The notes under the pieces were generated by a model, which was not told the origin of the DNA, did no database searches, and saw only the letters and a list, made by a program, of their open reading frames with translations. The position numbers and the translations under genes were made by a program. Positions 54,384 through 56,154 of a DNA stretch of 64,000 nt are shown one piece after another. This DNA is from Methanothrix sp. Its GTDB lineage: Archaea > Halobacteriota > Methanosarcinia > Methanotrichales > Methanotrichaceae. Every line of letters begins with the position of its first letter. The stretch's first letter is position 1. The stretch covers positions 1 through 64,000 of the forward strand of contig JAPKXZ010000074.1 of NCBI GenBank assembly GCA_026394555.1, read 5' to 3'.

Positions 54384-54656
54384 TCACTTCAAGGCCATGT
54401 TGATGGCTTTTATCAGCTCTTCTTTGGAGGTGACGCCCATCCACTTCTGTACTTCCACGCCGTCCTTCTCCAGGATGATGGTGGGCACAACCGTGATGCC
54501 CTTCTCGAGAGCCAGGTCCCCCTCCTTGTCTACATTGATCTTGTGAAATTCCACCTTATCGCTGAAATCCTTGGCCAGATCCTCGAAGATGGGGGCCTGC
54601 ATCTTGCAGGGTCCGCACCAGTCTGCATAAAAGTCCATAAGTTTGAGTTTAGCCAT
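54384..54656 (-). CDS. Thioredoxin
   Basis: A 90-residue thioredoxin with the redox site WCGPCK at residues 13-18 and the cis-proline segment GITVVPTIILEKDG. It is shorter than typical bacterial thioredoxin but usual for methanogens. First gene of the minus-strand set with the nuclease. Confidence 0.95.
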   Translation of the reverse strand: MAKLKLMDFYADWCGPCKMQAPIFEDLAKDFSDKVEFHKINVDKEGDLALEKGITVVPTIILEKDGVEVQKWMGVTSKEELIKAINMALK

Positions 54657-54700
54657 AATCTAACCGATGCACTTCCTGGTATATCAAATTGTGACTTCCT

Positions 54701-54720
54701 CCCTGGCCTAAAGACCAGGG
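54701..54720. other. Terminal hairpin of the IS200/IS605-type element (right side)
   Basis: CCCTGG-8-CCAGGG, 6-base-pair stem with loop CCTAAAGA. It mirrors the hairpin at 55663-55684 in stem type and loop (CCTGAAGA), as expected for subterminal palindromes of this group. Confidence 0.65.
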
Positions 54721-54729
54721 CTTCCTACT

Positions 54730-55635
54730 TCATTGACCGGCTGATTCTTTTGCCGTATCTCGATAGGCTCTTCCCCTCAGTCCGAGGGTGCGAATGTTCA
54801 GGCTGGCATTGATGTCTCTGTCCATCTCCAGCCCACAATTAGGGCAAATATGGACTCTTTCTGCCAGCGTCTTAGGAACCATTATGCTGCATTGGGAGCA
54901 TTTCTGCGAAGTGTATCTCGCATCTACCAGTTCTACCACTTTGCCAGCCTTTGCAGCTTTGCTCTGAGTGAACTGAATTAGTTTGCCCCAAGCATGGTCT
55001 TGAATATGCTTTGCTAGATGGTGATTCTTGAGCATACCGGAAATATTAAGGCACTCAAATACAATTAGGTCGGCTGAATCTACGAGCATCTTGGATAATT
55101 GATGCAAGAACTCATCCCTATGGTGTTGAACATCTTGACTGATCTTAGCGACCTTCGCTTTGGCTTTCCGTCTATTGGCCGAACCCTTCTTTTTTCGAGA
55201 GAGGTTCCTTTGGGCTACTGAAAGCTTCTTTTCTGCCATGACGTAGTACCGTGGATATTCAACCGTCTCACCACCGGAAAGAGCAACCAGACTCTTCAAG
55301 CCCACATCTACACCAATAGCGGTCTTTGGCTCAATCGGAGATACATCTTCAACCTCGGATATCAAGATCGCATACCAGTGACCTAGATTATCCTTTTTGA
55401 TGGTGCTGGTCTTGATCTTGCCTTCAACTTCCCTATGCTTGAATATTCGGATAGAACCTATCTTGGAGAGCGTCAGCTTTGATCCGGCATAATCTCTAAG
55501 CTGAGTATCTCTACATCCTTTTTCTGCAATTGTATGCAAGATGTCTGATAGGTGAGTGGCGACCTCTCCGGCAAGTACAGGATGCCTATATTTAGGAATC
55601 CAAACTAGATGATAGTTTAGGTTATACTTATCCAT
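54730..55635 (-). CDS. tnpB: IS200/IS605 chimera: TnpA start joined to TnpB body
   Basis: A 301-residue ORF. Residues 1-40 (NYHLVWIPKYRHPVLAGEVA) are the start of an IS200-type Y1 transposase TnpA. From about residue 53 it is TnpB: KLTLSKIGSIRIFKHREVEGKIK, catalytic D110 in IGVDVGLKSL, E194 in VFECLNISG, zinc cysteines 246, 249, 264 and 267, and D274 in MDRDINASLN. The TnpA HUH motif and catalytic tyrosine and the TnpB N-terminal region are absent, so an in-frame deletion of a tnpA-tnpB pair is the simplest origin. The element is framed by two like hairpins. Confidence 0.85.
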   Translation of the reverse strand: MDKYNLNYHLVWIPKYRHPVLAGEVATHLSDILHTIAEKGCRDTQLRDYAGSKLTLSKIGSIRIFKHREVEGKIKTSTIKKDNLGHWYAILISEVEDVSPIEPKTAIGVDVGLKSLVALSGGETVEYPRYYVMAEKKLSVAQRNLSRKKKGSANRRKAKAKVAKISQDVQHHRDEFLHQLSKMLVDSADLIVFECLNISGMLKNHHLAKHIQDHAWGKLIQFTQSKAAKAGKVVELVDARYTSQKCSQCSIMVPKTLAERVHICPNCGLEMDRDINASLNIRTLGLRGRAYRDTAKESAGQ

Positions 55636-55662
55636 AGCTGATTATAGGCATTGAAACTATAT

Positions 55663-55684
55663 ACTCCGGCCTGAAGACCGGAGT
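55663..55684. other. Terminal hairpin of the IS200/IS605-type element (left side)
   Basis: ACTCCGG-8-CCGGAGT, a perfect 7-base-pair stem with loop CCTGAAGA, about 30 bases ahead of the chimeric ORF start. Confidence 0.65.
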
Positions 55685-55704
55685 TTGCGACCTGTATTTT
55701 TCTA

Positions 55705-56154
55705 TCAAACTATGTCGAACTTAACGCCGATCTTAAATATCCTGAGGGTAGGCAAAACCAGCATTTTTCGTCCCGTCTTAGTCTTGATATCCTGCAATAT
55801 TTCCTGGATTCGCTCCTCGGTGGCCGACACAGTGAACCACAGATTGTAGCCGCTCTCATCGGGACGCAGATAGTTGTGCGAGACCTCAGTGTACTCATTA
55901 ATGACCTCTGCCGCCCTATCCGCCTCTTCCCGGGATACTTCTAGGGCCGCCAAAATTCCGCTGCGACCCAATTTACGAAGATCAAGTACCGGTCCGATCC
56001 TGCGCACCAGTCCCTCCTTCTGCAGGCAAGAGAGCCGGGTTATTACCTCTTCTTCATCCAGTCCCAGAGCCTGGCCTAAATCCCGGAAAGGTCGAGGCGT
56101 TATGGGAAAGCCGTCTTGCACGGCAGAAAGCAGTTCTAAGTCGATCTCATCCAT
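55705..56154 (-). CDS. ahbB: Siroheme decarboxylase subunit (AhbA/AhbB type)
   Basis: A 149-residue Lrp/AsnC-like protein: winged helix with FPITPRPFRDLGQALGL, EGLVRRIGPVLDLRKLG, and a ligand-binding half with VSHNYLRPDESGYNLWFTVSA, where the histidine of HNYLR is the conserved siroheme-decarboxylase residue. AhbA and AhbB together decarboxylate siroheme. Only one such subunit lies here, directly downstream of the ahbD gene; whether it is A or B is not settled. Confidence 0.82.
   Translation of the reverse strand: MDEIDLELLSAVQDGFPITPRPFRDLGQALGLDEEEVITRLSCLQKEGLVRRIGPVLDLRKLGRSGILAALEVSREEADRAAEVINEYTEVSHNYLRPDESGYNLWFTVSATEERIQEILQDIKTKTGRKMLVLPTLRIFKIGVKFDIV

What the first reader, a model, noticed from the sequence alone, without database searches (positions are those of the whole stretch)
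54693..55690. Chimeric TnpA-TnpB ORF in an IS200/IS605-type element
One ORF has the first 40 residues of a Y1 transposase followed in frame by the RuvC and zinc-finger part of TnpB with all three acidic residues and four cysteines. TnpA catalysis and the TnpB guide-binding N-terminus are missing. Two matching hairpins still frame the element. TnpB is the ancestor of Cas12, so a start-swapped TnpB with an intact RuvC core is unusual.
Basis: partly seen in the sequence, partly recalled or inferred. Interest (0 to 1): 0.62.

Follow-up and report, generated by a model that had tools for sequence, protein, structure and literature searches.

The report
Internally deleted IS200/IS605 jumping gene
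A small archaeal jumping gene has lost its middle, so the front of its transposase now reads into the back of its RNA-guided nuclease; this looks like a recent one-off decay product, most likely dead as an enzyme, rather than a new kind of protein.

Summary
A 301-codon ORF (54730-55635, minus) starts with 39 residues of a Y1 transposase (TnpA) and continues from about residue 50 as the C-terminal two thirds of TnpB, with the RuvC triad D110/E194/D274 and cysteines C246/C249/C264/C267. It lies in a complete 1013-bp IS200/IS605-type element (54691-55703). The closest relative, a Methanothrix genome, has the uninterrupted site; insertion was 3' of TTGAT with no duplication. The reading as a 'start-swapped TnpB' is only partly right. 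DNA comparison shows two lesions: a ~570-576-nt deletion joining GGATCA-like sequences in tnpA and tnpB, and a 2-nt loss in tnpA. The deletion alone would end in a stop; the frames meet only because of the 2-nt loss. Residues ~40-49 are out-of-frame tnpA whose original frame still reads VEILSLEIMPD, so the damage is recent. The fusion occurs once among 80 matches to this TnpA N-terminus in 237 genomes of the class. Internal deletions are common in this element family and in print for Haloquadratum. The lost segment covers the TnpB REC domain and part of WED, so RNA-guided cleavage is predicted dead. Most likely a non-autonomous, decaying deletion derivative.

The parts
54691..55703 (-). Whole IS200/IS605-type element, 1013 bp, LE at the high-coordinate end (boundaries ambiguous by one A)
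   Evidence: Uninterrupted site TTCGACATAGTTTGAT|AATTTGATATACC in L109 (G013); coordinates; same end structures in relatives
55704..55708 (-). Target/TAM pentamer TTGAT, overlapping the TGA stop of the upstream gene
   Evidence: the L106 element is also preceded by TTTGAT
55664..55683 (-). LE hairpin CTCCGGTCTTCAGGCCGGAG
   Evidence: near-identical in L083, L085, L106, L146
54701..54720 (-). RE hairpin CCCTGGTCTTTAGGCCAGGG, followed by the GAGGAAGTCAC end
54730..55635 (-). Chimeric 301-aa ORF
55519..55635 (-). In-frame TnpA N-terminus (residues 1-39)
   Evidence: 87% identical to TnpA of G047
55486..55518 (-). tnpA DNA read in a shifted frame (ORF residues ~40-50); original frame still reads VEILSLEIMPD, ending just before the HUH motif
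55514..55527 (-). A-rich run GCAGAAAAAGGATG where 2 nt are missing relative to L083 and L085
55480..55485 (-). Deletion junction GGATCA, shared (or nearly so) by the tnpA and tnpB sides
54730..55485 (-). tnpB remnant (second part of WED, RuvC, TNB zinc finger, C-terminus)
54678..54791 (-). Candidate omega-RNA 3' scaffold region; sub-threshold full-length match to Rfam HgcC (RF00062), 25.2 bits against a gathering score of 50
55705..56154 (-). Flanking upstream gene, AsnC/Lrp-like 149 aa (name from recall), coding sequence intact
54384..54656 (-). Flanking downstream thioredoxin-like gene (name from recall, motif WCGPC)

Best explanation
This is a non-autonomous, decaying internal-deletion derivative of a Methanothrix IS200/IS605 element. 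An element with tnpA upstream of tnpB inserted 3' of TTGAT between two genes (shown by the uninterrupted site in the closest relative). Replication slippage or repeat-mediated deletion between short GGATCA-like sequences removed ~570-576 nt, from just before the TnpA HUH motif to TnpB residue ~131 in ISDra2 numbering (shown by alignment; the slippage mechanism, and whether the deletion came before or after the insertion at this site, are not shown). A separate 2-nt loss in tnpA happens to bring the two frames together. The ORF has neither TnpA catalysis (no HUH, no tyrosine) nor the TnpB REC domain and first WED strand, so it should be dead both as transposase and as RNA-guided nuclease (inferred by homology). 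The two ends are intact, so a matching TnpA could in principle still move it in trans (inferred); the one other Y1 gene found in this genome is only about 30% identical.
For: Uninterrupted target site in G013/L109. tnpA homology continues at the DNA level past residue 39 in a shifted frame up to GGATCA; in the old frame that stretch is identical in protein to L083, 0 of 11 residues changed with 7 nt differences. Junction positions give 570 nt missing relative to L106 and 576 nt relative to L048 and L049. Original-frame reading of the junction gives ...MPDQS and then TGA, read from the printed sequence. TnpA part pS 0.77, pN 0.05 against L085; TnpB part omega 0.15 on its branch against 0.117 elsewhere: both parts evolved as two normal genes until recently. 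Of 9 distinct elements found with both ends, 5 carry internal deletions (window, L018, L019, L066, L146), 3 have the full layout (L048, L049, L106) and 1 has insertions (L083). Two further TnpB genes with internal deletions: L138 (G013) and L139 (own genome). Precedent: core and internal deletions of IS605-type elements by repeat-mediated deletion in Haloquadratum (PMC3119063, passages seen).
Against: No stop has appeared in 301 codons, a 15-21-nt difference at the tnpA start is also in frame, and the TnpB part shows no relaxed selection, so retention of the ORF is not excluded. The immediate parent (same TnpA subtype plus a >95% identical TnpB, both intact) was not found. Raw reads could not be checked.
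Confidence: 0.88

Rival explanations
1. The chimeric ORF is retained as a working protein, for example a guide-RNA-binding or dominant-negative regulator that uses the RuvC/TNB core and omega-RNA without REC.
For: ORF intact; RuvC triad and zinc finger complete; no relaxation of selection on the TnpB part; RE/omega-RNA-like region intact; ISDra2 RuvC and WED bind the omega-RNA scaffold (PMC10097598).
Against: Single copy, 1 of 80 matches in 237 genomes; the linker is out-of-frame tnpA that still matches TnpA in its old frame; residues equivalent to the TAM-contacting Y52, K76, Q80 and T123 are deleted.
Confidence: 0.05
2. Assembly or sequencing artefact: either the 2-nt difference in the A-rich run or the whole junction is an error in a metagenome assembly.
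For: The 2-nt difference lies in an A-rich run; the genome is a draft in 75 contigs.
Against: No other near copy was found in the genome to mis-join with: next TnpB match 56% identical, next Y1 gene about 30% identical. Both ends are of the same subtype, the site is interior to a 156-kb contig, and the outer joints fit the empty site exactly.
Confidence: 0.07
3. Recombination between two different IS copies rather than an internal deletion within one copy (a variant of the best explanation: same outcome, other route).
For: The closest TnpB, L046 (92%), sits in an element with the other end type, so ends, tnpA and tnpB do get reshuffled in this family.
Against: L146, the next closest TnpB (90%), has the same end type as the window element, so one parent with matching parts is plausible; the junction has only ~6 nt of shared sequence.
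Confidence: 0.2

Closest known systems
Methanothrix-group IS200/IS605 elements with tnpA+tnpB (L106, L048, L049; L083 in an interrupted form)
   Same: End hairpins, GAAGTCAC right end, tnpA-then-tnpB order, TTGAT or NTGAT target in the same end subtype
   Different: The window element lacks ~570-576 nt covering the 3' part of tnpA and 5' part of tnpB, plus 2 nt in tnpA and ~20 nt after the LE hairpin
ISDra2 TnpB (8bf8; PMC10097598)
   Same: RuvC triad, CCCC zinc finger, TTGAT TAM/target
   Different: No WED residues 1-12, no REC 13-116, no WED 117 to ~130
Core-deleted IS605-type elements and PATEs of Haloquadratum (PMC3119063)
   Same: IS605-type ends kept, coding core lost by deletion at direct repeats
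   Different: PATEs are treated there as transposase-free; here a long ORF remains open across the junction
tnpA-less relatives L046/L018, L047/L019 and L146 (the last on a viral contig; its TnpB matches the window's as closely as that of BK063673, host Methanosarcinales)
   Same: Internal deletion of tnpA with both ends kept
   Different: There tnpB is complete

Membership tests
IS200/IS605 element | Subterminal hairpins at both ends | tested here: met
IS200/IS605 element | Insertion 3' of a short fixed target with no target duplication | tested here: met
   Uninterrupted site in L109
IS200/IS605 element | Complete Y1 TnpA with HUH motif and catalytic tyrosine (autonomous element) | tested here: not met
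   Pfam match covers positions 2-38 of 121; homology ends just before the HUH motif
TnpB RNA-guided nuclease | RuvC triad and CCCC zinc finger | tested here: met
TnpB RNA-guided nuclease | Complete WED and REC domains for TAM and guide-target binding | tested here: not met
   Homology starts at residue 132 of 8bf8_A; domain limits from PMC10097598
TnpB RNA-guided nuclease | omega-RNA scaffold at the 3' end | tested here: inconclusive
   Sub-threshold full-length HgcC match at the expected place; expression not testable
Conserved TnpA-TnpB fusion family | Same junction in more than one genome or copy | tested here: not met
   1 of 80 matches in 237 class genomes has a long open frame;
PATE/MITE-like derivative | Ends kept, no functional transposase, evidence of movement in trans | tested here: inconclusive
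   First two met; only one copy seen, so no evidence of movement after the deletion

The most novel reading that the evidence does not exclude
The chimeric ORF is expressed and kept: a RuvC/zinc-finger core with a TnpA-derived start binds the element's own omega-RNA and acts without TAM recognition, for example as a regulator or as a competitor of intact TnpB.
Probability: 0.04. Interest if true: 0.6.

Novelty: new member of a known kind. Interest (0 to 1): 0.13.

Why it matters
As it stands, it is a clean, roughly datable example of how IS200/IS605 elements decay by short-repeat deletion, with the uninterrupted site, ends and junction all defined. It also warns that an in-frame domain fusion in such elements can arise by two chance lesions.

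Tried and rejected
Conserved fusion family: rejected, the junction was not found again. add little: I saw 25 of 3540 plasmid records, 25 of 568 phage records and all 7 viral loci; no listed row starts before query residue 13, and rows starting at 13-45 were not opened one by one.

Structure prediction gave nothing usable: the chimera reached mean pLDDT 50.1 with residues 1-122 below 50, but the control, the complete TnpB of L146, reached only 39.9, so shallow alignments limit both. No fold search was run.

Selection test: the two-ratio codon model (13 sequences, 243 codons, my own script) gave omega 0.152 on the window branch against 0.117 elsewhere, LRT 0.41; omega fixed at 1 on that branch is worse by LRT 19.9. 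This cannot separate a recent deletion from retention, and it counts against long neutral decay. Private residues in the window sequence (9, of which 4 at otherwise invariant columns) are ordinary among the 13 sequences.

The idea that HgcC is the omega-RNA was followed only far enough to note it: 12 of 30 loci support it, and the 4 loci above Rfam's cut-off do not. Of the 30 loci, Pfam was run on 19 same-strand ORFs (plus one opposite-strand ORF, L180); the other 11 loci had no same-strand ORF or one that I judged too short or too far, and count here as not supporting. A first motif scan for TnpB beside HgcC used a pattern that was too strict (0 of 30) and was replaced by the Pfam scans.

The first search for complete elements used an LE pattern that missed one end type; one search replaced it. 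28 further right-end matches without a recognised left end (some of them duplicate loci) were not classified.

Full report
What is there. The minus strand carries a 301-codon ORF at 54730-55635. Residues 3-39 match Y1_Tnp (33.5 bits), 96-204 OrfB_IS605 and 216-281 the TNB zinc finger. Residues 52-296 align with residues 132-383 of a solved TnpB, 8bf8_A, while residues 3-43 or 4-39 align with Y1 transposases. D110, E194, D274 and C246, C249, C264, C267 are present.

The element. Its closest genome, G013, has the upstream gene at 97% identity followed directly by TTCGACATAGTTTGAT-AATTTGATATACC, where the window has 1013 bp between the two halves. All 24 loci printed carry the upstream gene; the window's own (L108) has the element, and of the other 23 none showed it directly after that gene in the 130 nt printed (22 of these 23 also gave a thioredoxin match). 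The element is therefore 54691-55703, inserted 3' of TTGAT without duplication, with LE at the high end. The pentamer overlaps the upstream stop codon and leaves that gene intact. The host is a Methanothrix: the named relatives are mostly Methanothrix records; the window genome itself is unnamed, and the label 'GP6' that I used for G001 in scripts and notes is a recollection from its size.

How the chimera arose. Aligned with relatives, tnpA homology does not stop at residue 39 but continues as DNA to GGATCA at 55480-55485, 2 nt short relative to L083 and L085, hence in a shifted frame. The tnpB side starts at the same six letters or a near match. The distance between these points is 570 nt in L106 and 576 nt in L048 and L049 (from the positions). 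In tnpA's own frame the junction reads ...IMPDQS and then stops; only the 2-nt loss carries the frame into tnpB. In the shifted stretch the old frame still reads VEILSLEIMPD, identical to L083 despite 7 nt differences, whereas the present frame shows 5 differences out of 10. So for nearly all of its history this DNA was selected as ordinary tnpA, and the frameshift and deletion are recent. The in-frame TnpA part tells the same: pS 0.77 and pN 0.05 against L085. The TnpB part shows omega 0.15 on its own branch, not different from 0.117 elsewhere.

How special it is. The first 39 residues found 80 matches in 51 of 237 class genomes; only the window's copy lies in an open frame longer than 181 codons. 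In the 50 genomes of the family (the order holds the same 50) the result is the same. Its own genome holds 16 other TnpB matches, the best 56% identical, and one other Y1 gene. Internal deletion as such is common here: 5 of 9 distinct elements with both ends have one, and L138 and L139 are TnpB genes with internal deletions, L138 in frame. For Haloquadratum, repeat-mediated core deletions and other internal deletions of IS605-type elements are described (PMC3119063, passages seen). My paper searches for a TnpA-TnpB fusion found no such case (search listings; passages of PMC3119063 and PMC9956272).

What it does. In ISDra2 TnpB the WED domain is residues 1-12 and 117-176, REC 13-116, RuvC 185-326 and 360-375; Y52A, K76A, Q80A and T123A abolish cleavage (PMC10097598, passages seen). 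By the alignment all four positions are deleted here. TnpA lacks its HUH motif and tyrosine. I therefore infer that the ORF has no transposase or guided nuclease activity. The ends remain, so movement by a matching TnpA in trans is possible but not shown. Structure prediction was uninformative, also for the control.

Verdict. A recent, so far unique, internal-deletion derivative of a known kind of element; low interest as a new system. The only thread of wider interest is a side observation: the candidate omega-RNA region of this and other TnpB genes weakly matches the old archaeal RNA family HgcC.

Noticed in passing
window 54678-54791 (-); G000 contigs C48, C38, C22, C24, C25, C66, C63, C39; loci L183, L184, L187, L194, L195, L197, L200, L202, L203, L206, L207, L208: Rfam HgcC (RF00062, an archaeal RNA family) matches, below the curated cut-off, at the 3' ends of TnpB genes: 9 of 13 matches in this genome and 12 of 30 loci from a phylum sample. 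HgcC may be, at least in part, TnpB omega-RNA. Against it: the 4 loci above the cut-off (L179-L182) showed no same-strand TnpB ending there. T. kodakarensis HgcC1-3 are transcribed from transposase genes (PMC4247193, passages seen); no held paper contains both HgcC and TnpB.
   Followed up: partly
L146; L158 (BK063673, Caudoviricetes sp. vir525, host Methanosarcinales): A tnpA-less element of the same end subtype with a complete TnpB 90% identical to the window's sits on a viral contig (L146); in the tailed-virus record BK063673 an equally close TnpB lies between virion genes.
   Followed up: partly
L138 (G013 C121, 845-1747 +): A 301-codon TnpB with an in-frame internal deletion that removes roughly 76 residues of the RuvC region.
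   Followed up: no
L083 (G001 C1 2791500-2796500): A relative with the same TnpA subtype is interrupted twice, once inside tnpA and once inside tnpB.
   Followed up: no
L046 and L047 against the window: Closely related TnpBs (92% and 88%) occur between two different types of element ends, suggesting exchange of tnpB between element lineages.
   Followed up: no
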